DNA of 64,000 nt, taken from assembly GCF_016862575.1 (NCBI RefSeq), contig NZ_BONF01000036.1:1-64000 (forward strand), given 5' to 3'. Below the pieces are notes generated by a model. The model was not told where the DNA came from and made no database searches. It saw only the letters and a list, made by a program, of their open reading frames with translations. Source of the DNA: Catellatospora bangladeshensis (GTDB lineage Bacteria > Actinomycetota > Actinomycetes > Mycobacteriales > Micromonosporaceae). Positions 47,664-60,269 of the stretch are shown in pieces; position 1 is the stretch's first letter; every line of letters begins with the position of its first letter. Made by a program: the position numbers and the translations under genes.

Positions 47664-48368
47664 TCAGGCGCCGTGCATGACGTCGTACCTGGCGGCGTCG
47701 ACGAACTGGGGCGCCCACTTGCGCTTCAGGCGCAGCATGTGCCGGTTGAGCCGGCGGGCGAAGAAGCCCATGGGGCGGTGGAAGTCGACGATCACGATGA
47801 CGCGCGCCTGGCCGCTGTCGTTGACCACCTCGTGCTCGTGGTTGACGTCCAGCACCACGCCCTCCCCCTCGGACCAGGTGTAGTACTCGTCACGGAGCCG
47901 GATGCGCGGCGGGTTGTCGGTCGGGATCCGCACACCCAGGTGGTAGCGGAGGATGCCCGCGTACGGATCCCGGTGCGAGGGCAGCCGGACGCCCGGGTCG
48001 AGGATCGACACGAACGCGTTGACGACGTTGGGCGTCGACTCGGCGAAGGCGAGCAGCGTGGGCAGTTCGGTGCGGGCGAGCTCGTTGGGCTGGCCGAACA
48101 TGTACGCGTAGTACAGCTTCCAGTCCTCCGACACCTGAGCGGCGCGGACCGGGTCGAAGGCGCCGTAGCGGGGGATCTCCCGGTGCGCGAGCAGCGCGTC
48201 CACCTCGGCCTTGAGCTGCGGGAAGCGTTCCTCGAGGGCGCGTACCTCGGGGAAGTAGGCCGGTGCGGACAGGACGGCCGGCCGGTCCTCGCCACCGGCG
48301 GCGCGCAGGAAGACCCAGTTGGTGAGGGCGCGGATCCTGGGCTGGTTGACGCTGGGCGAACCCTTCAT
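47664..48368 (-). CDS. Aspartyl/asparaginyl beta-hydroxylase-family oxygenase
   Basis: 234 residues; ATG after GAGAGG. PF05118-type double-stranded beta helix: LPSHRDPYAGILRYHLGVRI supplies one Fe ligand (H132), GEGVVLDVNHEHEVVNDSG the second (H179), and ARVIVIVDFHRP the 2-oxoglutarate-binding Arg. As in the family, no third carboxylate ligand is needed. Members hydroxylate the beta carbon of Asp, Asn or related residues. Last gene of the NRPS operon; since the adenylation domain looks Asp-specific, beta-hydroxylation of carrier-bound or released Asp is a coherent hypothesis. Confidence 0.82.
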   Translation of the reverse strand: MKGSPSVNQPRIRALTNWVFLRAAGGEDRPAVLSAPAYFPEVRALEERFPQLKAEVDALLAHREIPRYGAFDPVRAAQVSEDWKLYYAYMFGQPNELARTELPTLLAFAESTPNVVNAFVSILDPGVRLPSHRDPYAGILRYHLGVRIPTDNPPRIRLRDEYYTWSEGEGVVLDVNHEHEVVNDSGQARVIVIVDFHRPMGFFARRLNRHMLRLKRKWAPQFVDAARYDVMHGA

Positions 48369-48396
48369 GTGCCTCTCCCGGTTGCTGGTGAGTGGG

Positions 48397-49677
48397 TTAC
48401 CGGCCGCCGGCCGGCGGCTGCAGGCCCTCGCGGGTGGCCTGCCAGCGGCGCGTCGTGCCGTCGGGGTGCTCGATGTCGTATTGCAGGTGGGCGAGGCAGC
48501 GATCGAGGGTGTCCAGCATCGCCTGGTGGCCGGGCGCCTGGCCGCGCAGGAAGTCCAGGAAGAACGTCATGACGCCCGGGGCCAGCTCCGCGCCGGGCGC
48601 GACCGACTCGGCGTAGCCGACGAGCCCCGGCTCCAAGGCGGCCTGCGCGGACCCGTGGAAGGCGCGCAGCACCCCGCCGGCCGGTGGCGGCTGGTTGCCG
48701 AACTGGAAGTGGACCGGGCCGGTGTCGCGCGGTTCGGGCAGCGTGACCGGCTCGCCGCAGGTCTCGGCCATGCCGAGTTCCAGCAGCCGCAGGCCGGTGG
48801 CGCGCTCGTACAGATCGGTCACGTAGCCGCCGATCCGGCCGTTGACCTCGATGATCCGCGGCCCGCCCGCGGTGAGCTTGAGCTCGGTGTGCACCAGCCC
48901 GCGCCGGATGCCCAGCGCCCGCACCGCCGCCGCCGCGAGGCGGGCGCATGCCGCGCGGACCTCCGGCGACAGGCGCGCGGGAAAGAACTGGCCCTGCTCC
49001 CGAAACGGCGTGAGCAGCGGGAACTTACCCGTCACGCCGATCGTCGAGGGCTCGCCGCCGACGACGAGCGACTCCACGGAGACGTAGTCGCCGATGTCCT
49101 CGCCGCCGATGCCGACCAGGAACTCCTCGACGACGAACGGCCGCTCGGCGCTGGGCTCGACCTCGGCGGGCAGGTCCCCGGCCGCCGCCACGAGGAAGGT
49201 GTCGCGGCTGCTCTGGCTGCGCCTGGGCTTGACGACCAGCGGGCCGGGCCGGCTGGCGAGCGCGTCGAGGACCTCCTGGCGGCTGGTGGCCACGGCCGAC
49301 CACACGGTGTCGACGCCGTGCTCGGCCAGCCGCCGCCGCTGGACCCACTTGTCGGTCAGCGCGGCGACGGTGTCCCGGTCGTGATAGGGCAGCCCCAGCC
49401 CTTCGGCCAGCTCCCCGGTCGTCGGGACCATGCCCTCGCTGAACGTGGTGATCGCCACCGGGTGGTGTTCGCGCAGCCGCGCGATCAGGTCGCCGGGCCG
49501 CTCGGGGTCGACCTCCAGGACCGGCCCGAGCGCGGCGTACTCCGCCTTCTCCGCCGGGTCGAGGCCGCCCGCCGCGGCCACGAACACCGGCGCGTGCCCG
49601 CACGCGGCGGCGGCCTTGGCGAGGTCGGCCGGCCGGATGGCCGAGCGCGGGACTACGGCGACGGCGACGGTGTTCAC
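48397..49677 (-). CDS. ATP-grasp ligase (second of pair)
   Basis: 426 residues from a GTG (VNTVAVAVVPRSA); a GTG four codons earlier is possible. ATP-grasp features: central PLVVKPRRSQSSRDTFLVAA, hinge RPFVVEEFLVG, catalytic HTELKLTAGGPRIIEVNGRI with the Mg-binding Glu and Asn. It resembles carboxylate-amine ligases of the BacD/carnosine-synthase group that join amino acids through acyl phosphates. In a cluster whose NRPS lacks a condensation domain, it probably forms a peptide bond. Confidence 0.82.
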   Translation of the reverse strand: MNTVAVAVVPRSAIRPADLAKAAAACGHAPVFVAAAGGLDPAEKAEYAALGPVLEVDPERPGDLIARLREHHPVAITTFSEGMVPTTGELAEGLGLPYHDRDTVAALTDKWVQRRRLAEHGVDTVWSAVATSRQEVLDALASRPGPLVVKPRRSQSSRDTFLVAAAGDLPAEVEPSAERPFVVEEFLVGIGGEDIGDYVSVESLVVGGEPSTIGVTGKFPLLTPFREQGQFFPARLSPEVRAACARLAAAAVRALGIRRGLVHTELKLTAGGPRIIEVNGRIGGYVTDLYERATGLRLLELGMAETCGEPVTLPEPRDTGPVHFQFGNQPPPAGGVLRAFHGSAQAALEPGLVGYAESVAPGAELAPGVMTFFLDFLRGQAPGHQAMLDTLDRCLAHLQYDIEHPDGTTRRWQATREGLQPPAGGR

Positions 49678-49681
49678 CTGG

Positions 49682-50941
49682 CTACCCACTTTCGCTGATC
49701 CGGTAGACGCGGTCCTTGAGCACGCCGATCCGCTGGTAGTCGCGGTCGATGGCGGCCATGTCGGCACCGCACATGAAGATGCGCATCGTGCTGGAGTAGA
49801 GGTCGACGGTGGGCCGGATGCGGTCGCCGGGGGCCAGTTTGAGGTCGAACCGGTGCACGGTCTCCAGCGCGGCGATCTGCTCGACCGCATCGCGGCCGAT
49901 GTGGTCGACGACGCCGTCGAGCGTCGTGGAGGTGGTGCAGCAGACCGCCTCGCAGCGTTTGCCGTACCGGCGCCCGGCGTGGTCGCGCAGGAAGCGCCCC
50001 GGCCGCAGCCAGGCCAGGGCGGTCAGGCCGGCCTGGTTGCCGCCCGCGCACCGGTCGTGGAAGCCCGGGTGCATGTTCCCGGCGATCCGGCAGCCGACCT
50101 CCACCAGCGCCGGGCCGTCCGGCGTCATGATCACCTCTGCGTGCGACGGGCCGTACCGGACGCCGAGGGCGTCGAGGGCCTGCTCCACGTACGCCGCCAG
50201 CTGCGGCACCGGCTCCTCGTCGGGGTGCAGCAGATGCTCGCGGTCGTAGATGTTGCGGCCCGAGGCGAGCAGGCGCTTGTGGTACTGCCACACCCCGCAC
50301 AGGTAGCGCCTGCCCTCGTAGGACACCATGTCGACGACGTACTCGGGGCCGTGCAGGTAGGACTGGACCAGGGCCTCCGCGTTGCCCTCGCCGTAGATCG
50401 TGTCGGAGGCCAGCACGGCCGCCGCTGCCGCGCGCACCTCGCCGTCCGTGGCGCACACGAAGACACCGTCCCCGGCCGCCGACCGCAGCGGCTTCACCAC
50501 CACCGGATAGCCGTTCCGCCCCGCCCAGTCGGCCAGCGCCGCGACGTCGCCGCTCTTGAACTGCCCGGCACAGTGCAGTCCGGCCGCACGCAGGGTCTCG
50601 ATCATCTGGTACTTGTCGCGCCGTGCCGCGGACAGCGACGCCGTGTTCGCGGGCAGGCCCAGCTCCCCCGCCAGCTCGTCGGCCAGCAGCACGCCCGGCT
50701 CCTGGCCCGCCATGACGCACACCGGCCGGTACGGCGCCAGCTGCGCGACGGTCTTGACGAGGTCCTCGTGGACGATGTTCTCCCGGTAGACGCTCAGGTC
50801 CGGCGCGGGCATCGACGGCATCAGCTCGGCGGTGCTCTGCACGTGCACCAGCTCCGCGCCGAGGGCGGCGAACTCGGGCGGCAGGTACTGCCCCGAGGTG
50901 TACGCGTCGACCAGCACGACTACCGGACCAGGCGGTGACAA
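49682..50941 (-). CDS. ATP-grasp ligase (first of pair)
   Basis: 419 residues; TTG start supported by GAGGAGGG seven bases upstream. An N-terminal pre-ATP-grasp domain (about 1-115) is followed by RRDKYQMIETLRAAGLHCAG, YPVVVKPLRSAAGDGVFVCA, ALVQSYLHGPEYVVDMVSYE and GPALVEVGCRIAGNMHPGFH. Mg and ATP ligands are intact. Amino-acid ligase-like. The low similarity to the following ATP-grasp gene suggests different acceptors or donors, so perhaps two successive ligations. Confidence 0.82.
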   Translation of the reverse strand: MSPPGPVVVLVDAYTSGQYLPPEFAALGAELVHVQSTAELMPSMPAPDLSVYRENIVHEDLVKTVAQLAPYRPVCVMAGQEPGVLLADELAGELGLPANTASLSAARRDKYQMIETLRAAGLHCAGQFKSGDVAALADWAGRNGYPVVVKPLRSAAGDGVFVCATDGEVRAAAAAVLASDTIYGEGNAEALVQSYLHGPEYVVDMVSYEGRRYLCGVWQYHKRLLASGRNIYDREHLLHPDEEPVPQLAAYVEQALDALGVRYGPSHAEVIMTPDGPALVEVGCRIAGNMHPGFHDRCAGGNQAGLTALAWLRPGRFLRDHAGRRYGKRCEAVCCTTSTTLDGVVDHIGRDAVEQIAALETVHRFDLKLAPGDRIRPTVDLYSSTMRIFMCGADMAAIDRDYQRIGVLKDRVYRISESG

Positions 50942-50980
50942 ATGGGAACCCTCCTCGAAGAAGCGCGCTGCGGCGGCAGG

Positions 50981-51754
50981 TCAGGTGGCCGAGAAGCCGC
51001 CGTCGACGAAGATCGTCTGGCCGGTCACGTACGCCGCGCTCTCACCGGCCAGAAACACCGCGACCCCGGCGAAGTCGGCCAGCTCGCCGTTGCGGCCGGC
51101 CATGGTGCGCCGCGCCATCGCGCCGGTGCGGACGGGGTCGCGGAAGACGGCCTCGGTCAGCGGTGTGTGCACGAACCCCGGGGCGATGGCGTTCACGCAC
51201 ACCCCGCGCGACGACCACGCCTCGGCCTGCGAGCGGGTCAGCCCGGCCAGGGCGGCCTTGGACACGCCGTACGCGCCGCTGTTGCCGAAGGCGCGGATCG
51301 CCTGCTGCGACGCGATGTGGATGATCCGGCCCCAGCCCCGTTCGGCCATCTTCGGGCCGAACCGCTGGCCCAGCACGAACGGCGCGTCGAGGTTCAGGGC
51401 CAGGGTGAGGTCCCAGTCGCGCTCGGCCAGCTCGTCCAGCGGCGGGCGCAGGTTGATCCCGGCGGAGTTCACCAGGATGTCGGGCACGCCGTGCCGGGCC
51501 AGCACCTCGTCGGCCAGCCGGTGCACCCCGGCACGGTCGCCGAGGTCCGCGCTGAGCCAGGCGGCGCTGCCGCCCTCGGCCCGCAGCGCCTCGGCGGCCT
51601 CGCGCAGGGCCTGCTCCCGGCGGGCGACGAGCAGCACGTCGGCCCCGGCCCGGCACAGGGCCTCGGCGATCGACCAGCCGATGCCCGAGCTGCCCCCGGT
51701 GACCACCGCCTGGCGGCCCTTCAGCGAGAACAGGCTGCTGAAGTAATCCTGCAC
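50981..51754 (-). CDS. Short-chain dehydrogenase/reductase (FabG-like)
   Basis: 257 residues. NAD(P)-binding TGGSSGIG, NSAG, catalytic Ser in IIHIASQQ, Tyr/Lys in YGVSK, and C-terminal FVDGGFSAT. The classic 3-oxoacyl reductase/gluconate dehydrogenase type. Co-transcribed in the NRPS operon; it could oxidise a hydroxyl made by one of the oxygenases or reduce the aldehyde released by the NRPS. Confidence 0.87.
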   Translation of the reverse strand: MQDYFSSLFSLKGRQAVVTGGSSGIGWSIAEALCRAGADVLLVARREQALREAAEALRAEGGSAAWLSADLGDRAGVHRLADEVLARHGVPDILVNSAGINLRPPLDELAERDWDLTLALNLDAPFVLGQRFGPKMAERGWGRIIHIASQQAIRAFGNSGAYGVSKAALAGLTRSQAEAWSSRGVCVNAIAPGFVHTPLTEAVFRDPVRTGAMARRTMAGRNGELADFAGVAVFLAGESAAYVTGQTIFVDGGFSAT

Positions 51755-51792
51755 GGTTCACTCCTTCTCGGGTCGCCGCGTGGCCGCGGCGC

Positions 51793-52551
51793 TCATGCTC
51801 GCTGCCGGGTGGGGCGCAGCCGGATGTCGTCGAGGTGCACGTGCCGGGGCCGGTCGATGACGAACCCGACGGTCTCGGCGACGTCGTCGGGGGTCAGCAG
51901 CGGCCCGCACTCCTCGGCGATCCGGTCGAACCACGCCATGTCGTACCCGGCCGCCTCCTGGAAACCGGAGCGGACGAAACCGGGCTCGATCAGGGTGACC
52001 CGGACGTTGAGCGCGCAGACCTCCTGGCGCAGCGCCTCGACCAGCGAGTGCAGCGCGAACTTGGTCGAGCCGTAGACGGGGTTGGCCGCCGAGACCTGGC
52101 GGCCCACCGTCGATCCGATGACGACGATGTCGCGCGCCTGGCCGCCGCCGTCGGCCGCGGCCTGCCGGGTGAACTCCGCCCCGCCGGCCCGCAGCTGGTG
52201 CAGCACGGCGAGATAGTTGGCCTCGACCAGCTCCCGCCACCGGGCGGGATCGGAGCCCAGCACGGTGCCGGGCAGGCCTTTGCCCGCCGACAGCACGAAC
52301 ACCGTCGCCGGTCCCCACGTCCGCTCCGCGGTGGCGAGCAGACCTTCGGCGTACCCCGGTTCGGTCATGTCCCCGGGCGCGGTGACGATCTCGCCGGGCG
52401 CCGCGGCGAGCTCGTCGGCGAGCCTGCCCAGCTGATCGGCGTTGCGGCCGGCGGCCACCACGCGGGCACCGGCGCGGGCGAGGTGCCCGGCGACCGCGCG
52501 GCCGATGCCGGAGGACGCCCCGGTGACGATGGCGATGCGTCCGTCAGCCAT
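51793..52551 (-). CDS. Short-chain dehydrogenase/reductase (YdfG-like)
   Basis: 252 residues. TGASSGIG, SAGKG, Ser in VVIGSTVGRQ, Tyr/Lys in YGSTK, and IEPGFVRSG. Shares only the SDR framework with the following SDR. Resembles serine/3-hydroxy-acid dehydrogenases (YdfG), which act on beta-hydroxy amino acids, a fitting activity if the cluster makes beta-hydroxy-Asp. The ATG lies eight bases inside the NRPS 3' end. Confidence 0.86.
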   Translation of the reverse strand: MADGRIAIVTGASSGIGRAVAGHLARAGARVVAAGRNADQLGRLADELAAAPGEIVTAPGDMTEPGYAEGLLATAERTWGPATVFVLSAGKGLPGTVLGSDPARWRELVEANYLAVLHQLRAGGAEFTRQAAADGGGQARDIVVIGSTVGRQVSAANPVYGSTKFALHSLVEALRQEVCALNVRVTLIEPGFVRSGFQEAAGYDMAWFDRIAEECGPLLTPDDVAETVGFVIDRPRHVHLDDIRLRPTRQRA

Positions 52552-55500
52552 GTGCCGCTCCTGTCCGTGCGGGCGGGACCAGCTCGCCCTGCCGTTGCAG
52601 TCCGTCGAGGTGCCTGACCAGCCAGTCGCGGGTCAGCACGGGGAACTCCACGCCCAGCGCGGCGAGCGTGCGCCGGGTGCGGGAGTGGTCGTACCGGACG
52701 TTGCGCTCGGGACGGCCGGCCCAGAAGTGTGCGAGCAGCACCGCGGGGTCACCGCCGGACAGGTGCGGCTCGAACAGGTCGGCGAACCCGGGCGCGTCGT
52801 CCTCGTCCAGCTCGCAGCCCAGGTCCCGCAGGGCCGCGAACACGTCGGTGTAGCGGACGTGGTGGGCCGTGTCGACGTGGAAGGTGCCGCCGGGGATCCG
52901 GGCGCAGCGCGAGATCTCCAGGATGCCCGCGGCGACGACGTCCACCGGGCTCAGCGCCAGCGTCTGCGGCCCGAGGCGGGGCACCCGACCGAGGCGTACG
53001 CAGGCGCGCAGCAGCTGCACCAGCCGGCTGTCGCCGCCGTTGCGCTGGAAGCGGCCGGTGACCGAGTGCCCGGTGACGTTGCCCGTCCGGTACACGAACC
53101 CGGCGCCGCCCTGCGCGGCGAAGTCCCGGACGACCCGTTCGGCGTCGTACTTGCTGCGCTCGTACTCGTTGAGGAAGCGCTGGCCGATGTCGAGGCTGTC
53201 CTCGCAGAACCCGGCCGGGTCGCCGTCGGGTCCGCTGCCGCACACCGCGAGGGTCGACACGTGGTGCAGGTCCTTCGGGCGGCCGGTGGCCGCGAGGCGG
53301 ACCAGCGCGCGGACCGAGCCGACGTTGTGCGCGGCGAAGGTGTCGCGCTCGCCGAACAGCCGGGTGTCGGCGGCCAGGTGGTAGATCGCCTCGACGTCGC
53401 GGCTCAGCCGGGCGTGCTCGGCCGGGGCGAGCCCGAGATCGGGTTCGGACAGGTCCGCGGCCAGCACCTCGATACGGCCGGCATACCGGTCGAGCCCTTC
53501 CCCGGGGATGTGCCAGGCGTACGCGTCGCGCAGGCGCTGCAGCGGGGTCGTGCCCGCCTTCTCGCGCACCAGGCAGGTGATCCGGGCTTCGGTCCGGGTG
53601 AGCAGCAGGTGCAGCAGGTGCGCGCCGATGAAGCCGGTCGCGCCGGTCAGCAGGACGCGGCGGTATGCGCGGACCGTCGCGGCGGGCGGCTCGCCGAGCA
53701 GCGCGGACGGCACCTGGACCAGCAGGCCCGTGCTGGATCCCCGCTCGGTCACCAGCGGCGCCGCGCTGTCGGGCAGGCCGCACGCGTCCAGCAGGCAGGC
53801 CCGCATCGCACGGGCGAGCGCCCGCATCCGCTCGGGGTCGTGCCTGCGGGCACTGAACGACAGGTCGACGACCAGCCGTCCGTCGCTGATCCGGGCGGTG
53901 ACCTTCAGGCCGTGGACCCGGTCGTTGCCGGGGCCGCGCACCGGTCCCACGGCGTGGCGGGACACCACCGGCCGCAGGTCGTCGGTGTGCGGAAGCGGCA
54001 GCGAGCCGAGGTGGTTGAAGCACACGTCGGTGCGGCGGGGCAGGCCGTGCAGGCCGTAGGCGACGCCGAGCCGGGGCACGCCGTCCAGCGCCGCGGCCGC
54101 CGACTTGGTGGTGGCGGCCAGGTCGCCCGCGGTGACGGCAAGCCGGACCGGGAAGGTGGAGGTGAACCAGCCCACCGTCCGGGCGATGTCGATCGTCTCG
54201 TCGAGCGCCGCCCGGCCGTGGCTCTCGACGTCCAGCACGACCTCGTCGGTGCCGTGCAGGTCGGCCAGGGCGTGGGCCAGTGCGCCGAGCAGCATCACGT
54301 GTGGCGCCGCACCGCCCGCCCAGTTCGCGGCCGTGCCGGTCATCGCGTCGGTCTCGGCCGGGCTCAGCGCGAACCACACCGCCTGCGCGTCCTGTTCGAG
54401 GTTGTCGCCGTCGGCGGCGGTGGCCGGGTATGCGGGGAGCCGGTCCAGGCCGTCCCAGTACGCCAGGTCCGGGCGCAGCCGGTCGGCGTTGTCGCGCAGG
54501 TGGGTGGCCCATGCCCCGAACCCGGGCGCGCTCTGCCGCAGGCGGGGCTCACCGCCGCGTGAGCGCTCGTCGTAGCAGCGGCTGAGGTCGTCGACGAGGA
54601 TGCGCCAGGAGACGGCGTCGACGGACAGGTGATGGCAGAGCAGCAGCAGGTGCGCCTGGGTGTCGCTGCGGAACAGGTGCGCCTTGAAGACGGTGCCGTC
54701 CGCGATGCTGAGCTCGGCCTGCCGGTCCCCCGCGATCTGCTCGATGTGCCCGGCCGCGGCCTCCTCCCCGGCGGGCAGCGCGGTGCTGGTGAACACGTCC
54801 TGTGGTGGGCGCACCTCGCGGCGGCGGGCCCGGCCGCCGGGGCCGTGCGGGCGGAACGCGGTGCGCAGCATGGGATGCATGGTCAGCACGTCCCGCACGG
54901 CGGCGGCCAGCTCGGGCACGCGCACCCCGGCGTCGATGTCCAGCAGCAGCGCCTGATTCCACCGGTCCGGCTGGGCGAAGTCCTGGGCGAAGAACCAGGA
55001 CTGGGCCGGGGACAGGGCGGTGCCGTCGTCCGCCGCGGGCGGCCGGGCCGGGCCGGGCGCGTCGCGGTGCGCCGCCGCGCGCAGCCGGGCGGCGAGCGCC
55101 GCCGGGGTCGGCGCGGCCAGGAACGCCGCGGCCGAGACGTGGTAGCCCAGGGCCTGCAGGTTGCCGATCACCGTGATGGCGTCGATGGAGTTGCCGCCGG
55201 CGGCGGTGAAGTCGTCGTCCGCGCCGAACGCCTGGTGGCCCAGCGCCCGCTGCCAGGCGGCGCGGACGTCGGCGAGGACCGGGTCGGCCGGTGGCGCGGC
55301 GGGCGGGGCGGCGCCGCGCGCGAGCCGTGTCTCGATCAGTTCGCGCAGGGTGCCGTGGTCGGTCTTGCCGTTGTCGTTGCGGGGAAAGGCGTCGAAGAAC
55401 TCGATCCGGTCGGGGACCAGGTACGGCGGCAGCACCTGGCGCAGCTGCCGGTGCACGTCGGGCCGGGGGCCGTGGCGGCGGCTGTCCGTGACGACGGCGG

Positions 55501-56842
55501 CGACCAGGGCCGGGCGGCGGTCGGCGCGGTGCACGACGACCGCGTCGGCGACGGCGGGCAGGCGGCGCAGCCCGTTCTCGACGTGGCCCAGCTCGACCCG
55601 GTACCCCTTGATCTTGACCTGCCGGTCGCCGCGGCCGAGGAACTCCAGCACGCCGTCGGCGCTGATCCGTACCCGGTCACCGGTGCGGTAGGCGCGGCCG
55701 GCCCCGGGGTGGGCCTGTTCGAGGTCGCGGGTGAAGGCGGCGGCGGTCGCGGCGTCGTCACCGCGGTACCCGAGGGCGACCGAGGGCCCCGCCACGTACA
55801 GCTCCCCGGTGGCGTCGCGCTCCCGGAAGCGCCCGTCGGCGGTCCGCACGAACAGCCGGTTGGCGCCCAGCGGCCGGCCGATCGGCACGGACGCCGCGTC
55901 GCCGAGGCCGTCGACGTGCGCCGGGCTGTCGAGCACGTGGCAGGCGACGCCCACGGTCGTCTCCGTGGGACCGTAGTGGTTGACCAGTGTCCGGGCCGTG
56001 CCGGAGGCGAGCACGCGCCGGGCGAGCGGCAGGCTGAGCAGTTCACCGCCGAGGACGAGCATGCGCAGGGCGGGTCCGGCCTGCGCATCGTCGTCGAATC
56101 CCGGCAGCACGGCGGCCCAGTGCGACGGCGTCGTCTTCAGCACGTCGATACGTTCTGCGCGCAGGTAGCGGCGCAGCGCCTGGGGGTCGCGGCGGGTCGC
56201 GTCGTCGACCAGGTGCAGCGTGCCGCCGGTCCACAGGGCCAGGAACACGCAGGTGTTGCCGAGGTCCGCGGCGAGCGTGGTGACGTGGGCGTAGGCGAGC
56301 GGCTCGGTGATGGCGAGCCGGTCGAGCAGCGACTCGGTGTAGTGGCGGATGTTGGCGTGGGAGACCACCACGCCCTTGGGGACGCCGGTGGACCCGGACG
56401 TGTAGAGCACGTACGCCGGGTCGTGCTCGCCGGCTGTAGCCTCTGGCGCCGGGCCGGTCTGCGGGTGCGGTCCGGTCTGCGGCTGGGCCACGGGCAGGCC
56501 GAGACCGGTGAACTCACCGGCGTGGCAGGGTGCGGCCAGCACGACGTCGGGATCGGCCGCGGCGAGCCGGGCCGCGCTCTCGCCGACCGGCTCGGTCGGG
56601 TCGACGACGGTGTACGCGGCGCCGGCCCGGAGCGCGGCGAGCATGGCCACGACGGCGTCCGGGGTCCGGTCGAGGTAGACGCCCACGAGCCGGCCCGGCC
56701 CGATGCCGTGCTCGTGCAGCAGCCGGGCGGTGCCGGTGACGCGGTCGTCGAGTTCTCGGTAGGTGACCCGCCCCGGTCCGGCGACCACGGCGGTGCGGTC
56801 CGGGTGGGCGTGTGCGTGCGCGCGAAGCAGCCCCGTGAGCAT
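52544..56842 (-). CDS. NRPS: adenylation - thiolation - epimerization - thioester reductase, Asp-specific by code
   Basis: 1432 residues from the ATG after AGAGGAA. A domain 1-505 (A3 LYTSGSTGVPKG at 146-157, A5 NHYGPTET, A7 YRTGD, K493 in NGKTD). Specificity residues by alignment to GrsA PheA: D193 L194 T197 K236 V263 G265 H289 V297 G298 K493, i.e. DLTKVGHVGK; published Asp code DLTKVGHIGK. T domain at about 520-595 with pantetheine Ser552 (GGNSI). E domain about 608-1040: HHLSVDAVSW (H738, D742), ESHGR (E873), RTVGWFTSTFPVRL. Reductase about 1060-1425: GATGFIG, HVSTLAV (T1197), YERSK (Y1227, K1231). No condensation domain. Expected: load Asp, epimerise, release as an aldehyde or alcohol. 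Confidence 0.88.
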   Translation of the reverse strand: MLTGLLRAHAHAHPDRTAVVAGPGRVTYRELDDRVTGTARLLHEHGIGPGRLVGVYLDRTPDAVVAMLAALRAGAAYTVVDPTEPVGESAARLAAADPDVVLAAPCHAGEFTGLGLPVAQPQTGPHPQTGPAPEATAGEHDPAYVLYTSGSTGVPKGVVVSHANIRHYTESLLDRLAITEPLAYAHVTTLAADLGNTCVFLALWTGGTLHLVDDATRRDPQALRRYLRAERIDVLKTTPSHWAAVLPGFDDDAQAGPALRMLVLGGELLSLPLARRVLASGTARTLVNHYGPTETTVGVACHVLDSPAHVDGLGDAASVPIGRPLGANRLFVRTADGRFRERDATGELYVAGPSVALGYRGDDAATAAAFTRDLEQAHPGAGRAYRTGDRVRISADGVLEFLGRGDRQVKIKGYRVELGHVENGLRRLPAVADAVVVHRADRRPALVAAVVTDSRRHGPRPDVHRQLRQVLPPYLVPDRIEFFDAFPRNDNGKTDHGTLRELIETRLARGAAPPAAPPADPVLADVRAAWQRALGHQAFGADDDFTAAGGNSIDAITVIGNLQALGYHVSAAAFLAAPTPAALAARLRAAAHRDAPGPARPPAADDGTALSPAQSWFFAQDFAQPDRWNQALLLDIDAGVRVPELAAAVRDVLTMHPMLRTAFRPHGPGGRARRREVRPPQDVFTSTALPAGEEAAAGHIEQIAGDRQAELSIADGTVFKAHLFRSDTQAHLLLLCHHLSVDAVSWRILVDDLSRCYDERSRGGEPRLRQSAPGFGAWATHLRDNADRLRPDLAYWDGLDRLPAYPATAADGDNLEQDAQAVWFALSPAETDAMTGTAANWAGGAAPHVMLLGALAHALADLHGTDEVVLDVESHGRAALDETIDIARTVGWFTSTFPVRLAVTAGDLAATTKSAAAALDGVPRLGVAYGLHGLPRRTDVCFNHLGSLPLPHTDDLRPVVSRHAVGPVRGPGNDRVHGLKVTARISDGRLVVDLSFSARRHDPERMRALARAMRACLLDACGLPDSAAPLVTERGSSTGLLVQVPSALLGEPPAATVRAYRRVLLTGATGFIGAHLLHLLLTRTEARITCLVREKAGTTPLQRLRDAYAWHIPGEGLDRYAGRIEVLAADLSEPDLGLAPAEHARLSRDVEAIYHLAADTRLFGERDTFAAHNVGSVRALVRLAATGRPKDLHHVSTLAVCGSGPDGDPAGFCEDSLDIGQRFLNEYERSKYDAERVVRDFAAQGGAGFVYRTGNVTGHSVTGRFQRNGGDSRLVQLLRACVRLGRVPRLGPQTLALSPVDVVAAGILEISRCARIPGGTFHVDTAHHVRYTDVFAALRDLGCELDEDDAPGFADLFEPHLSGGDPAVLLAHFWAGRPERNVRYDHSRTRRTLAALGVEFPVLTRDWLVRHLDGLQRQGELVPPARTGAAHG

Positions 56843-56907
56843 GCGGCATTCCTCTGCGTGTCGACTCGCGAAGTACCGGTCCGGCGGCCGAGCCGCCGGT
56901 GGCTGGT

Positions 56908-57717
56908 TCAGCTCCAGAACACGAGCGGTTCCGCCGGGCCCTTCGACGCGATGAACGCGGCCGCGCCGACGCGGTGGGTGCCCTGTCCGGGGGTCACCGC
57001 GTGCAGCATGCGAGGGCTGAAGATGATGAGGTCGCCGGCCTCCGGGTGGATCACGTGGACCGGTTCCTCCACGGACTTCGGGTCCAGTCCCTCCACATCG
57101 AGGATGATCTCGGTCTCCGCGGCGGTGGGCTCCCGCAGCCACAGGTGCAGGTCGCCGCCCCGCTCGGGGACCTGGAGGTAGATGTTGGCGACCAGCTGGT
57201 TCAGGACGCCCTCGATCTCGGGGGCGTCGGTCTCCTGGTCGATGGCGTCGTTGTGCGGGTAGAACTCCGACGTCGACGGCTGGAAGACCCGGAAGGCGCC
57301 GACGAAGCAGGCCCGCCCCCGCAGCCGCAGCAGGTTGGCTCCCGCGGGCCACAGCTCCTGCAGGTCCAGGCGCACCTTGTCCACGGGCGCCAGGTAGGGG
57401 TGGAACATCGAGCGGACGTCGGCGATGGCGGGCAGCGCGGCGTCGTGGTACTTCGCGGTCAGCTCCGGGTCCCACTTGGTGTCGATGTGCGGCATGTACA
57501 CGCGGCCGACGCTGCTCGTGTACTGCTTGTGGTAGTGCCCGAGCGCGGGGTGGTCGATCGCCTTCTGCGCCACCTCGGCGGCGATGGCGACCGGGTAGTA
57601 GCCCTTGACGTGGATGGCGCCGATCTCCCGGCCCGCCAGCGCCAGCAGCGTCTCGGTCGTCAGTTCGGTGGCGATGACGTTCGTCGCTGTCCTGACGATG
57701 GTCTCGGTGGCAGACAT
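56908..57717 (-). CDS. 2-oxoglutarate/Fe(II) oxygenase, distantly WelO5-like, with hydroxylase-type HxD
   Basis: 269 residues from ATG 57717 (MSATETIV), chosen for GGGGG eight bases upstream; ATG at 57726 is possible. Beta-helix oxygenase: Fe ligands H155 and D157 (FYPHNDAID) and H239 (SPRMLHAVTPG), 2OG-binding R249. Local resemblance from memory to WelO5-type halogenases (GYYPVAIAAEVAQKAID, PEAGDLIIFSPRMLHAV, C-terminal FW), but Asp occupies the site where halogenases have Gly, so a hydroxylase or desaturase is expected. First gene of the NRPS operon; the substrate may be carrier-bound Asp or the final peptide. Confidence 0.78.
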   Translation of the reverse strand: MSATETIVRTATNVIATELTTETLLALAGREIGAIHVKGYYPVAIAAEVAQKAIDHPALGHYHKQYTSSVGRVYMPHIDTKWDPELTAKYHDAALPAIADVRSMFHPYLAPVDKVRLDLQELWPAGANLLRLRGRACFVGAFRVFQPSTSEFYPHNDAIDQETDAPEIEGVLNQLVANIYLQVPERGGDLHLWLREPTAAETEIILDVEGLDPKSVEEPVHVIHPEAGDLIIFSPRMLHAVTPGQGTHRVGAAAFIASKGPAEPLVFWS

Positions 57718-57726
57718 GGCACTCAT

Positions 57727-57900
57727 CCCCCGTCGCATGTGGAGTCCCGGCCGCACCGTTGCGGCGAGTCGGCAGTCGATCGGCCCTCGATGGAACGCCG
57801 TGGTTCGGTATATCATCAAGCGTGGACATACTAAGCCCAGCCGTCAGCACCCTGTCAATGACTTGAATTCACCGATGCGTTCAGAACCGGAGTGTGGCCA
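57727..57900. promoter_or_regulatory. Divergent promoter region of the biosynthetic cluster
   Basis: The 174 bases between the oxygenase and GNAT genes hold an AT-rich block, TATATCATCAAG through GGACATACTAAGC (about 57809-57837), unusual for this genome and a likely position for both -10 boxes. A small GTCA-A-TGAC palindrome lies at 57854-57862. No regulator gene is adjacent. Confidence 0.45.
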
Positions 57901-59037
57901 GTGCAGACCCGAGCGGAGACCGTCCTGCTGCCCGACGGCGTGCGGATGGTCCACCACGCAGCCGACCTGCCCCGCGCCGCCTGGGACGCGCTGACCGGAC
58001 CCGCCGACTTCTGGCTCACCTGCCGCTGGCTCGACGTCGTCGAGGCCACCGCGGGCGTCCCGATGGCCTACCTGTGGACCGAACGCGCAGGCAGGCCGGT
58101 CGCCTGCCTGGCCACCGCGACCGCGACCGCCGCCGTGCCGTGGGCGCTGGGCCGGCCGGACGTCCTGCTGCGGCTGGCCGCGAAGTCCCGGCTGCCCGGG
58201 GCCGCCGAGTTCCTGGCGGAGCTGCCGGGCGAGCCGACCGAGCAGCTCATGCCCACCCTGCTGGCCGGTGGGCGGCACACCGGCAGCACCCGGATGCTGT
58301 GCGGGCCGGACGCCACCCCGGCCGACGTCACGGCGCTGGCCGCCGCCGCCGAGGAACTCGGCCGCCAGGCACAGGCCGCGACCGTCTGCTACCTCTACCT
58401 CGACGAGCACGACCGCGGCCTGGCCGACGTGCTCGCCCGGCGCGGCTATCGGCACTTCACCACCGGGGAGTACTGCTCACTGCAGGTGCCGCCCGGCGGC
58501 TTCGACGGCTACCTGGCCGCGCTGCCCCGCAAACGCCGCCAGGCCGTCACCGCCGACCGCCGGCGCATCCAGGCCGCCGGCGTCACGGTCACCGCCGAGG
58601 CCCTCGGCCAGTCCGACCTCGACCGGTTCGCCGAGCTGGAATCCGGGCTGCTGGCCAAGTACGGCATCGACCTGCGCCCGCCGCAGCTGCTGCCGCTGCT
58701 CCGGCAGCTGCGCGACGGCTTCGGCGGCGACGCGTTCGCGATGGTGGCCCGCGCCGAGGGAGAGGTCCGCGGCTTCGCCCTGATCCTGCGCCACCACGAC
58801 ACCTGGTACGCCCGGCAGACCGGCTACGACTACGCCTACCAGCAGCGCACCGGCGCCCCGCTGTACTTCGAGCTGCTCTACTACCGCCTCGTCGAGGAGG
58901 CGGCCGCCGCCGGGGTGCGCGCCATCCACTACGGACTGGGCAGCGCCGACACCAAACGATCGCGCGGCTGCACGTCCAGCGAACAGCGCTGCCACCTGCT
59001 GTTCCTCTCCGGCCGGCGGGAAGGAGCACCGGCATGA
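57901..59037 (+). CDS. FemAB-like GNAT acyltransferase
   Basis: 378 residues from the GTG at 57901 (GGAG ends eight bases upstream); GTG 57892 is an alternative. FemAB/BioF2-type double-GNAT layout: FDGYLAALPRKRRQAVTADR, RRIQAAGVTVTAEALGQSD, DAFAMVARAEGEVRGFALIL, QRTGAPLYFELLYYRLVEEA and HYGLGSADTKRSRG. Relatives transfer amino acids from aminoacyl-tRNA in antibiotics or cell-wall precursors. First gene of the unit divergent from the NRPS operon; it could add an amino acid to the amine of the product. Confidence 0.75.
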   Translation: MQTRAETVLLPDGVRMVHHAADLPRAAWDALTGPADFWLTCRWLDVVEATAGVPMAYLWTERAGRPVACLATATATAAVPWALGRPDVLLRLAAKSRLPGAAEFLAELPGEPTEQLMPTLLAGGRHTGSTRMLCGPDATPADVTALAAAAEELGRQAQAATVCYLYLDEHDRGLADVLARRGYRHFTTGEYCSLQVPPGGFDGYLAALPRKRRQAVTADRRRIQAAGVTVTAEALGQSDLDRFAELESGLLAKYGIDLRPPQLLPLLRQLRDGFGGDAFAMVARAEGEVRGFALILRHHDTWYARQTGYDYAYQQRTGAPLYFELLYYRLVEEAAAAGVRAIHYGLGSADTKRSRGCTSSEQRCHLLFLSGRREGAPA

Positions 59038-60269
59038 CCCTGCTCGACACCGCCAAGGCCGCCGAACGCGCCCCGGTGCTCCCCCGCGGGCCGGGCGTCG
59101 CGCTGTACGGCGCGGCCGGCTTCACCAACGCCCTCGGCATGGGCTTCTTCTACCCGTTCAGTCTGCTGTTCTACACCGAGCTGTCGGGCGTGCCGCTGCG
59201 CACGGTCGGCCTCGTGCTGACCGTCACCGCGCTCGCGGTGCTGCCGGGCCTGTTCGCCGTCGGCCGCCTCGTGGACCGCGTCGGGCCACGGCCGGTCCTC
59301 GTCGCGTCGTCGGTGCTGCGCGGCCTGTGCTTCATCGGATTCATCGCCCTGCCGGGCGTGGTGCCGCTGGCGGTCTTCAGCCTCCTGCTCGCGCTGGGCA
59401 ACCGGGCCGACAACGCCGCCGCCCCGCTGCTCGCGCTGCGCCTGGCCCCGCCAGGGCAGTCCAGCCGGTGGCTCGCCCTGTCGCGGGTGGTGTTCAACGC
59501 GGGCATGGGCCTCGGCGCGCTCATCGCGGGCGTGTTCATCGTGGACACCACGTCGGGCTTCGTGGCCCTCGGCGCGGTGTACGCGGCGGGCATGGCCCTG
59601 ACCGCCGGGCTCTACTTCAGCACCCGGGCCGTCACCCCGCCCGGACCGGCGCCGGCCGGACCCACCCGCAGCCGGCCCGCCCCGCCGTGGGGCGACGTCG
59701 CGTTCATCCGCGTCGCGACCGCCAACGCGGTGCTGCTGACGGCCGCGCTCGCCGTGGAGACCGGGATGCCGGTGTTCGTGCTGCACGAGCTGGCCATGCC
59801 GTCCTGGACGGTCGGTCTGCTGTTCGCCGTCAACACCGCCCTGCTGGCGCTGCTCCAGCTGCCGGTCAGCCGGGTGCTGGACCGGTTCCGGCCCGCGGTC
59901 GTGCTCGCCCTCGGCGGGATGTCGTACGCGGCACTGTACGCGGCGCTGCTGCTCGCCGGCGGGGCCGGTCCGCAGGTGCAGGTCGCCCTGCTGGTCGGCG
60001 GCATCGCCGTCTACACGCTGGGCGAGCTGGCCGTCTCGCAGGCCGCCCTGGTCATGCTGACCGGCCTGCCCCCGGACCGGCAGAAGGGCTCCTACCTGGC
60101 CTTCAACCAGTTCTTCGTGGGCGGTGCCACGGCGCTGTCGCCGCTGCTGGCCACCTCCCTGCTCACCGGGATGCCCACCGCGCTGTGGTGGGCGCTGGCC
60201 GGGCTCAGCACGGTGTCGGCCGCGGTGCTGCTGCCTGGCCGCCTGCGCGGCTGGCGAGCGGCGGCGTAG
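59034..60269 (+). CDS. MFS exporter
   Basis: 411 residues; ATG in ATGA overlap with the GNAT gene, GGAAGGAG upstream. Twelve hydrophobic helices with the MFS signature GRLVDRVGPRPVLVASSVL between helices 2 and 3 and a central hydrophilic loop (PPGPAPAGPTRSRPAPPWGD). Most likely exports the cluster product and confers self-resistance. Confidence 0.85.
   Translation: MTLLDTAKAAERAPVLPRGPGVALYGAAGFTNALGMGFFYPFSLLFYTELSGVPLRTVGLVLTVTALAVLPGLFAVGRLVDRVGPRPVLVASSVLRGLCFIGFIALPGVVPLAVFSLLLALGNRADNAAAPLLALRLAPPGQSSRWLALSRVVFNAGMGLGALIAGVFIVDTTSGFVALGAVYAAGMALTAGLYFSTRAVTPPGPAPAGPTRSRPAPPWGDVAFIRVATANAVLLTAALAVETGMPVFVLHELAMPSWTVGLLFAVNTALLALLQLPVSRVLDRFRPAVVLALGGMSYAALYAALLLAGGAGPQVQVALLVGGIAVYTLGELAVSQAALVMLTGLPPDRQKGSYLAFNQFFVGGATALSPLLATSLLTGMPTALWWALAGLSTVSAAVLLPGRLRGWRAAA

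What the first reader, a model, noticed from the sequence alone, without database searches (positions are those of the whole stretch)
47664..60269. Undescribed-looking Asp-centred biosynthetic cluster without a condensation domain
Seen: one A-T-E-reductase NRPS, two dissimilar ATP-grasp ligases, two SDRs, two different iron oxygenases, a FemAB-like GNAT and an MFS exporter in two divergent operons with tight spacing. Known: ATP-grasp and FemAB enzymes form amide bonds independently of NRPS C domains. Inference: the pathway makes a small peptide aldehyde, alcohol or amine from (hydroxy)aspartate, with peptide bonds made by three non-NRPS enzymes. I recall no characterised cluster with this combination.
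Basis: partly seen in the sequence, partly recalled or inferred. Interest (0 to 1): 0.9.

Follow-up and report, generated by a model that had tools for sequence, protein, structure and literature searches.

The report
Aspartate-reducing enzyme cluster with peptide ligases
A soil actinobacterium carries a compact set of nine genes that probably turns aspartic acid into an unusual reduced building block and then stitches amino acids onto it with stand-alone enzymes, a route for which no product or description was found in the searches made here.

Summary
In detail: nine intact genes at 47664-60269, seven on the minus strand (AspH-family oxygenase, two ATP-grasp ligases, two SDRs, an A-T-E-R NRPS, a WelO5-like oxygenase) and a divergent FemAB-like/MFS pair. 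The NRPS "condensation" hit has epimerization motifs; the adenylation code reads as Asp. Eight related loci (found by the oxygenase) all have NRPS and SDR2; both ATP-grasps and AspH occur at 5, FemAB and MFS at 4, SDR1 at 3. SDR2 belongs to a rare NCBIfam family (SDR_TniO). Its two close matches in 72,556 plasmid records both lie near an Asp-coded A-T-E-R: Paraburkholderia phymatum (with a Ddl-like ATP-grasp and MATE exporter) and Rhizobium leguminosarum. Neither has the oxygenase nearby, so A-T-E-R + SDR2 is the true core. Best reading: the core makes a D-configured reduced aspartate (amino alcohol, or aldehyde), and stand-alone ligases couple amino acids to it. Chemistry is inferred, not shown. 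A second A-T-E-R family followed by an aminotransferase was found in Streptomyces. The NCBI name "TniO" suggests such a cluster may already have been named; no paper was found, but the searches were weak.

The parts
47664..48368 (-). AspH: aspartyl/asparaginyl beta-hydroxylase-family (PF05118) oxygenase, HxD...H motif intact
   Evidence: Pfam E 1.5e-31; PDB AspH E 4.4e-12; orthologues 73-97% at 4 of the 7 other loci; alignment
48397..49677 (-). ATPg1: ATP-grasp ligase, nearest solved relatives L-amino acid ligase BL00235 and BacD (GTG start)
   Evidence: PDB 3vot E 2e-15, BacD about 1e-10; orthologues 57-94% at 4 of the 7 other loci
49682..50941 (-). ATPg2: ATP-grasp, L-amino-acid-ligase-like, DdaF/PRK07206 group
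   Evidence: NCBIfam PRK07206 339.6 bits against cut-off 302; DdaF 213.1 bits, below its cut-off of 840; PDB 30vh E 1.2e-60; orthologues 70-96% at 4 of the 7 other loci
50981..51754 (-). SDR1: FabG-like short-chain dehydrogenase, accessory
   Evidence: Pfam E 4.1e-58; orthologues only in G051 and G207 of the 7 other loci
51793..52551 (-). SDR2: SDR_TniO-family short-chain dehydrogenase, reading frame overlaps the NRPS end by 8 bp
   Evidence: NF038213 334.5 bits against cut-off 300; orthologues at the 7 other loci above cut-off
52544..56842 (-). A-T-E-R single-module NRPS, code DLTKVGHVGK (read as Asp)
   Evidence: Pfam domains; PDB chains of TycA, GrsA and MxaA; code and motifs; orthologues 59-94% at the 7 other loci
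56908..57726 (-). Oxy: WelO5-like Fe/2OG oxygenase with intact HxD (H158, D160) and H242, so read as hydroxylase and not halogenase
   Evidence: Pfam WelO5 E 1e-6; profile to PDB: uncharacterised 3w20 7.5e-7, WelO5 1.8e-5; invariant in 14 of 14 aligned rows, window included; orthologues 73-99.6% at the 7 other loci, which were found through this gene
57727..57891 (.). 165-bp divergent promoter region between the two operons
   Evidence: spacing; alike in G000 and G051; no common motif seen by eye with G207 and L046
57892..59037 (+). FemAB-like / GNAT acyltransferase, accessory
   Evidence: PF04339 E 1.4e-14, PF13480 E 3e-12; no PDB match at E 0.1; orthologues 67-96% at 3 of the 7 other loci
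59034..60269 (+). MFS exporter
   Evidence: PF07690 E 1.4e-32; orthologues 62-97% at 3 of the 7 other loci

Best explanation
A two-stage pathway. Stage 1 (core A-T-E-R NRPS and SDR2, with Oxy in the actinobacterial form): L-Asp is loaded by the A domain onto the T domain; Oxy hydroxylates it, probably at the beta carbon; the E domain inverts C-alpha; the R domain releases it by reducing the alpha-thioester to an amino aldehyde, which SDR2 most likely reduces on to the alcohol. The product would be (R)-3-amino-4-hydroxybutanoate or its 2-hydroxy derivative, a small beta-amino acid with a free carboxylate. Stage 2 (ATPg1, ATPg2, AspH; FemAB, SDR1 and MFS accessory): the L-amino-acid-ligase-like ATP-grasps couple one or two amino acids to it, AspH adds a further hydroxyl, the FemAB-like enzyme caps an amine, and the MFS pump exports the peptide. 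Shown here: gene content, domain order, intact motifs, Asp-type code, conservation, and the coupling of SDR2 with A-T-E-R. Inferred: every chemical step, their order, and the product.
For: Domains and motifs intact in the eight A-T-E-R orthologues. NRPS and SDR2 beside Oxy at 8 of 8 loci. SDR2 passes the NF038213 cut-off at 8 of 8. Of 101 relatives only G000 and G051, both known to carry the cluster, pass it. SDR2 relatives at E<1e-45 occur in 2 of 72,556 plasmid records, both near an Asp-coded A-T-E-R, so NRPS reductase plus this SDR is a conserved unit in three bacterial classes. P. phymatum pBPHY02 sets A-T-E-R + SDR beside a Ddl-like ATP-grasp (below the NCBIfam Ddl cut-offs) and a MATE exporter: a different ligase and exporter in the same roles, which fits ligase coupling of a D-configured block. 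ATPg1 and ATPg2 match L-amino acid ligases. Block first, stand-alone ligases second is reported for cystargolide and belactosin (PMC11427300, passages). An iron beta-hydroxylase, an A-T-R protein and a short-chain dehydrogenase occur together in the chloramphenicol cluster (PMC4249514, passages with table).
Against: The 8 loci were found through Oxy, so Oxy at 8 of 8 is by construction; the two proteobacterial A-T-E-R loci have no Oxy match. Of 12 loci with Oxy at 59% or more, 4 lack A-T-E-R and SDR2: three lie upstream of a multimodular NRPS with a Thr-like first code (read by eye, recalled codes) and one in a radical SAM/ATP-grasp cluster. Asp as Oxy's substrate is therefore not secure. Three of the 8 lack the ligases in the stretch seen (genome-wide for ATPg2 only in G249). 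In the chloramphenicol paper CmlJ was placed among genes whose role was obscure. Structure models were too poor to use. Nothing shows 2- versus 4-electron reduction, and no product is known.
Confidence: 0.45

Rival explanations
1. Aldehyde warhead: SDR2 does not reduce the R-domain product; a di- or tripeptide ending in D-Asp-al (or hydroxy-Asp-al) is exported as a covalent protease inhibitor, or cyclises through its free amine to a pyrazinone.
For: R domains release aldehydes, and a minimal A-T-R synthetase gives amino aldehydes that become a pyrazine (PMC7586950, abstract and passages). R-domain motifs intact.
Against: A TniO-type SDR lies with the NRPS at all 8 loci and near it at the beta- and alphaproteobacterial ones, which argues that the aldehyde is processed further.
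Confidence: 0.25
2. The beta carboxylate is the ligation handle and the reduced residue is N-terminal: a bestatin-like alpha-hydroxy-beta-amino acid peptide, with the ATP-grasps activating the block's own carboxylate. This is a special case of the best explanation.
For: DdaF, to which ATPg2 is related (213.1 bits, below its cut-off), is recalled to activate a modified amino acid carboxylate. A beta-hydroxylated, C-alpha-inverted and reduced Asp would have the 3-amino-2-hydroxy acid pattern of bestatin (recalled).
Against: No test of which partner is the carboxyl donor; Oxy regiochemistry unknown; Oxy kin occur without Asp-coded modules in the stretch seen.
Confidence: 0.2
3. The core and the ligase genes are two neighbouring pathways; the ligases do not act on the NRPS product.
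For: Core-only loci exist (3 of 8). ATPg2-like ligases occur in 5 plasmid records, none of which has an E-R match; one of them also holds an AspH-family gene (L097).
Against: One operon with gaps of -8 to 65 bp, kept in the same relative order at 5 loci in two families, 3 of them (G207, L045, L046) without the window's flanking genes; an unrelated ATP-grasp beside the P. phymatum core.
Confidence: 0.1

Closest known systems
Chloramphenicol cluster CmlA, CmlP, CmlJ (Streptomyces venezuelae; PMC4249514, passages with its gene table seen)
   Same: iron beta-hydroxylase, adenylation-PCP-reductase protein and short-chain dehydrogenase in one cluster
   Different: L-PAPA substrate, no E domain listed, no ATP-grasp ligases listed; hydroxylase of another iron-enzyme type (recalled); CmlJ's role unsettled there
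Minimal A-T-R NRPS ATRed (Xenorhabdus indica; PMC7586950, abstract and passages seen)
   Same: single-module NRPS without C domain and with reductive release
   Different: no E domain, Phe and not Asp; product a pyrazine; no ligases or SDR in the passages seen
Cystargolide / belactosin ligase assembly (PMC11427300, passages seen)
   Same: unusual block made first, amino acids added by stand-alone ligases including ATP-grasp enzymes
   Different: block is a beta-lactone acid; no reductive NRPS in the passages seen
L-amino acid ligases: BL00235, BacD, 30vh, DdaF
   Same: ATPg1 and ATPg2 are of this ATP-grasp group
   Different: below the equivalog cut-offs of DdaF and BacD; here two are paired with a reductive NRPS
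NCBIfam NF038213 SDR_TniO_fam
   Same: SDR2 passes its curated cut-off at all 8 loci and the two proteobacterial ones
   Different: the model text shown names no pathway; no paper naming TniO was found (one search was swamped by the kinase TNIK)

Membership tests
Single-module reductive NRPS (A-T-R type) | A and T domains with a terminal thioester reductase in one protein, no C domain | tested here: met
   Pfam order AMP-binding, PP-binding, PF00668 (E motifs), NAD_binding_4; C-terminus matches MxaA chain 4u7w (its being an R domain is recalled)
Single-module reductive NRPS (A-T-R type) | releases an amino aldehyde or alcohol | not testable with these tools
   needs an enzyme assay
NRPS epimerization (E) domain, not condensation | HHxxxDxxSW, E(S/T/G)HGR, GWFTS, FNxLG motifs (recalled) | tested here: met
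   present in the window protein and, with small changes (GWLTS in L037 and L047, YNYLG in L036), in the 7 orthologues
Chloramphenicol-type hydroxylase + reductive NRPS + SDR set | iron hydroxylase, reductive NRPS and SDR in one cluster | tested here: met
   8 of 8 loci, which were found through the oxygenase; functional analogy only
Chloramphenicol-type hydroxylase + reductive NRPS + SDR set | aromatic (PAPA) substrate and CmlA-type hydroxylase | tested here: not met
   Asp-type code; WelO5-like 2OG enzyme. Not filed as a member
SDR_TniO_fam (NF038213) | score above the curated cut-off of 300 bits | tested here: met
   334.5 bits; orthologues 327.8-371.9, G051 338.9, L094 367.1 and L095 319.4
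L-amino acid ligase (ATP-grasp) | sequence relationship to characterised L-amino acid ligases | tested here: met
   ATPg2 to 30vh E 1.2e-60; ATPg1 to BL00235 (3vot) E 2e-15
Dapdiamide synthase DdaF / alanine-anticapsin ligase BacD | NCBIfam equivalog cut-offs 840 and 850 bits | tested here: not met
   ATPg2 to DdaF 213.1 bits; ATPg1 to BacD 33.9 bits
FemAB aminoacyl-tRNA-dependent ligase | FemX-like fold and tRNA use | tested here: inconclusive
   PF04339/PF13480 matches only, no PDB match at E 0.1, model pLDDT 43.7
WelO5 carrier-independent halogenase | loss of the metal-binding carboxylate (recalled) | tested here: not met
   HxD intact in 14 of 14 aligned rows, window included: predicted hydroxylase
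Published or MIBiG cluster with the same gene set | matching entry | not testable with these tools
   no MIBiG or antiSMASH; seven open-access paper searches showed none in their listings

The most novel reading that the evidence does not exclude
The Asp-coded A-T-E-R + TniO-family SDR unit is a portable 'reduced D-aspartate' factory, used in three settings (Actinomycetota, Betaproteobacteria, Alphaproteobacteria) and joined each time to different coupling machinery. In the window it feeds two ATP-grasp ligases to make a bestatin-like peptide built on (R)-3-amino-2,4-dihydroxybutanoate, i.e. a metallo-aminopeptidase inhibitor with an Asp-derived zinc-binding head group made by chloramphenicol-like logic.
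Probability: 0.15. Interest if true: 0.75.

Novelty: new variant of a known kind. Interest (0 to 1): 0.55.

Why it matters
If right, it is a block-first, ligase-second route in which an NRPS only reduces and inverts one amino acid, and simple stand-alone ligases do the rest. Such ligases should be easier to swap than NRPS modules. The core (A-T-E-R + TniO-type SDR) gives a clear search handle for a family of reduced-aspartate natural products in actinobacteria and plant symbionts, and the serS gene near the Rhizobium version suggests a testable target. The second A-T-E-R family, followed by an aminotransferase, points to 3,4-diaminobutyrate (aminocarnitine-like) products from the same chemistry.

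Tried and rejected
Structure prediction of Oxy and the FemAB-like protein gave mean pLDDT 31.2 and 43.7, so no fold search was run. phmmer of Oxy against the PDB found nothing at E 0.01; a 14-row profile found an uncharacterised chain and WelO5 weakly. Seven paper searches aimed at this cluster showed no match: searches returned no paper; 42 two and 58 four papers, none on such a cluster by title and abstract; 25 ('TniO') 11 papers, 10 listed, none on biosynthesis; 81 was swamped (1,411 papers, 15 listed, all on the kinase TNIK because I included tniK) and is no real negative. Searches looked for aminocarnitine biosynthesis without success among the papers listed (15 of 1,835 and 12 of 37); one search was for chloramphenicol. 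The review PMC6146020 is not held. A halogenase reading of Oxy was rejected because HxD is intact. A condensation reading of PF00668 was rejected on motifs. The idea that Oxy marks Asp pathways was weakened. No common promoter motif was seen across genera. The expectation that Streptomyces genomes without the first A-T-E-R family lack the TniO SDR agreed (0 of 246), but nothing rang in the control genomes of that run either and only 10 candidates a genome were scored.
Full report
Observation. The window lies on contig C36 of an 8.83-Mb genome. A relative in its family (G249) carries a 12.5-kb stretch 98.7% identical to Actinoplanes rectilineatus, so the family is probably Micromonosporaceae (inference). 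Frame analysis and ORF listing give nine genes between 47664 and 60269. Minus strand, in transcription order: Oxy 57726-56908, NRPS 56842-52544, SDR2 52551-51793, SDR1 51754-50981, ATPg2 50941-49682, ATPg1 49677-48397, AspH 48368-47664. Plus strand: FemAB 57892-59037 and MFS 59034-60269.

The NRPS. The 1432-aa protein matches AMP-binding, PP-binding, PF00668 and NAD_binding_4 in that order. The PF00668 part has HHLSVDAVSW, ESHGR, RTVGWFTS and FNHLG, kept in the 7 orthologues with small changes (GWLTS in L037 and L047, YNYLG in L036). It aligns with chains of tyrocidine synthases 1 and 2, gramicidin S synthase 1 and bacitracin synthase 3, and the C-terminus with MxaA; that those stretches are E and R domains is recalled. 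The ten specificity residues are DLTKVGHVGK, and DLTK(V/I/L)GHVGK in the orthologues, close to the recalled Asp code DLTKVGHIGK. The T-domain serine and the R-domain YxxxK are intact.

Conservation. An Oxy search of 300 genomes drawn from the family found a match at E<=0.001 in 42, of which 4 are orthologue-grade (100, 97, 82, 78%: G000, G051, G207, G249). The E-R part of the NRPS found the same four, and no others, in 250. A pattern-based scan of the named genome collection with an Oxy alignment gave four more loci from 98 candidate stretches: Streptomyces sp. CB02056 (L045), S. albidoflavus NRRL B-1271 (L046), A. rectilineatus (L047), Streptomyces sp. 150FB (L048). At these 8 loci: NRPS and SDR2 8 of 8 (Oxy too, by construction); ATPg2, ATPg1 and AspH 5 of 8; FemAB and MFS 4 of 8; SDR1 3 of 8. 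A search of 392 Streptomyces genomes gave further Oxy relatives; four of them at 59-70% (L065-L068) have neither this NRPS nor SDR2, so 8 of 12 loci with Oxy at 59% or more carry the core. A phylum sample of 396 gave no further orthologue-grade match (2 matches at E<=1e-30: G000 itself and a partial one in G349).

Borders and limits. G207 keeps all nine genes in the same order at 63-85% identity without any of the 8 flanking window genes tested, which sets the borders at AspH and MFS. L045 has another transporter-like ORF (by eye, not scanned) between ATPg1 and AspH. G249 and L047 are nearly the same sequence and G000/G051 are close kin, so there are about six independent lineages. L045 ends about 270 bp past AspH, and L047 and L048 reach about 5 kb past SDR2, so absences there are local; in G249 ATPg2 has only a 28% match anywhere (E 2.4e-6). 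The NRPS tree does not resolve Streptomyces from Micromonosporaceae rows (open fork); the patchy distribution hints at horizontal spread but the tree does not show it.

SDR2 and the core. SDR2 scores 334.5 bits against NCBIfam NF038213 SDR_TniO_fam (cut-off 300); orthologues 327.8-371.9 and G051 338.9. Of 101 relatives only G000 and G051 pass. In 72,556 plasmid records SDR2 at E<1e-45 finds two, and both carry an A-T-E-R. P. phymatum pBPHY02 (L094): Ddl-like ATP-grasp, MATE transporter, A-T-E-R (DLTKFGHIGK, 40%) and the SDR (367.1 bits), all on one strand; a class III aminotransferase is annotated 12.5 kb further on. R. leguminosarum GLR17 p3 (L095): A-T-E-R (DLTKVGHIGK, 33%), the SDR (319.4 bits, about 1.8 kb away with another SDR between), serS, a cupin-like protein and two NRPS genes. 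Neither has an Oxy, AspH, ATPg or FemAB match at E 1e-3. A third plasmid hit, S. meliloti (H11), covers only 44% of the query, the reductase part. The NRPS tree joins P. phymatum to the window family with full support but on a long branch, which the tool warns about; R. leguminosarum joins the second family although it has the TniO-type SDR.

A second A-T-E-R family. Of 246 Streptomyces genomes, 4 have a 34-37% relative covering E and R at E<=1e-60, code DLTKIGHVGK, each followed by an aminotransferase-like gene; the two scanned (L086, L088) are class III. Neighbours include TauD (L088), a weak PhyH match (L087) and, in L086, a carnitine acyltransferase, methyltransferases and a CmlS-like halogenase. 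I infer that these aminate a D-Asp aldehyde to a 3,4-diaminobutyrate of aminocarnitine type. An aminotransferase here stands where the TniO-type SDR stands in the window (other SDR genes are nearby), which fits an aldehyde as the A-T-E-R product.

The oxygenases. Oxy is WelO5-like but keeps HxD and the distal His in 14 of 14 aligned rows (14 rows chosen from more loci), so hydroxylation is likely. In G728, G1020 and G740 Oxy relatives (64-70%) sit just upstream of a multimodular NRPS, of which only part was fetched, whose first code looks Thr-like by eye; the L068 copy is split in two pieces. In G1075 (59%) one sits with an ATP-grasp protein, a second protein that looks ATP-grasp-like by eye but has no Pfam match, aminotransferases and radical SAM proteins. 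More distant kin (34-36%) stand next to cyclodipeptide synthase-like genes in L069 (above the Pfam cut-off) and L070 (below it). So Asp as Oxy's substrate rests on gene order only. AspH's substrate is open.

The ligases. ATPg2 is in the PRK07206/DdaF group and close to the solved L-amino acid ligase 30vh; ATPg1 is closer to BL00235 and BacD. Both are well below the DdaF and BacD equivalog cut-offs. ATPg2-like proteins of 49-57% occur in 5 plasmid records, none with an E-R match; L097 also holds an AspH-family gene and two more ATP-grasp proteins.

Mechanism and comparison. The best-supported path is given in Best explanation. It works like the chloramphenicol set (hydroxylase, A-T-R, dehydrogenase; PMC4249514) joined to a ligase stage like cystargolide/belactosin (PMC11427300), but is a member of neither. 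No description was found in the listings of seven paper searches, which cover open-licence PubMed Central only and of which one search was uninformative. The NCBIfam name TniO warns that a named cluster may exist elsewhere.

Noticed in passing
L086 3062-15797, L087 6725-15475, L088 3439-13003, L089 4514-13238: Second Asp-coded A-T-E-R family in 4 of 246 Streptomyces genomes, each followed by an aminotransferase-like gene (class III in the two scanned); L086 also has a carnitine acyltransferase, methyltransferases and a CmlS-like halogenase: possible aminocarnitine-type pathway.
   Followed up: partly
L095 2871-16605 (R. leguminosarum GLR17 plasmid p3): A-T-E-R + TniO-type SDR beside NRPS genes and an annotated serS: candidate seryl-tRNA synthetase inhibitor cluster with self-resistance; whether serS is a second copy was not checked.
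   Followed up: no
L094 8716-17324 (P. phymatum pBPHY02): Ddl-like ATP-grasp, MATE exporter, A-T-E-R and TniO-type SDR on a plasmid typed as conjugative, next to annotated transposase and recombinase genes.
   Followed up: partly
L065, L066, L068 (Streptomyces G728, G1020, G740): Oxy relative (64-70%) directly upstream of a multimodular NRPS whose first A domain looks Thr-like and methyltransferase-bearing by eye; L068's Oxy match is split in two pieces.
   Followed up: partly
L067 385-11994 (G1075): Oxy relative (59%) with a GrpB-family protein, an ATP-grasp protein, a second ATP-grasp-like protein (by eye), radical SAM proteins (one KamA-like by eye) and two aminotransferases.
   Followed up: partly
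L069 6614-9745, L070 6831-9936: WelO5-like oxygenase (34-36%) next to a cyclodipeptide synthase-like gene and a transporter-like gene.
   Followed up: partly
L071 1400-7821 (G1057): A 53% ATPg2 relative about 4 kb from a 33% Oxy relative, with transporter-like genes between them.
   Followed up: no
L049 3833-19847 (G207, about 3 kb beyond AspH): Two more ATPg2-like ligases (36 and 34%) and adenylation-domain matches just beside the G207 copy of the cluster.
   Followed up: no
L037 2063-12428, L047 4570-14403: Core-only copy (Oxy, NRPS, SDR2) with lower GC3; recombinase/transposase-like genes nearby (by eye in L037, Pfam rve_3 in L047) and a gamma-glutamyltranspeptidase gene upstream in L047.
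   Followed up: partly
L097 3404-29011 (Streptomyces sp. NBC_01006 plasmid): ATPg2-like ligase in a cluster with three ATP-grasp proteins in all, an AspH-family gene, NRPS and ketosynthase genes and an aminoglycoside-phosphotransferase-family gene.
   Followed up: no
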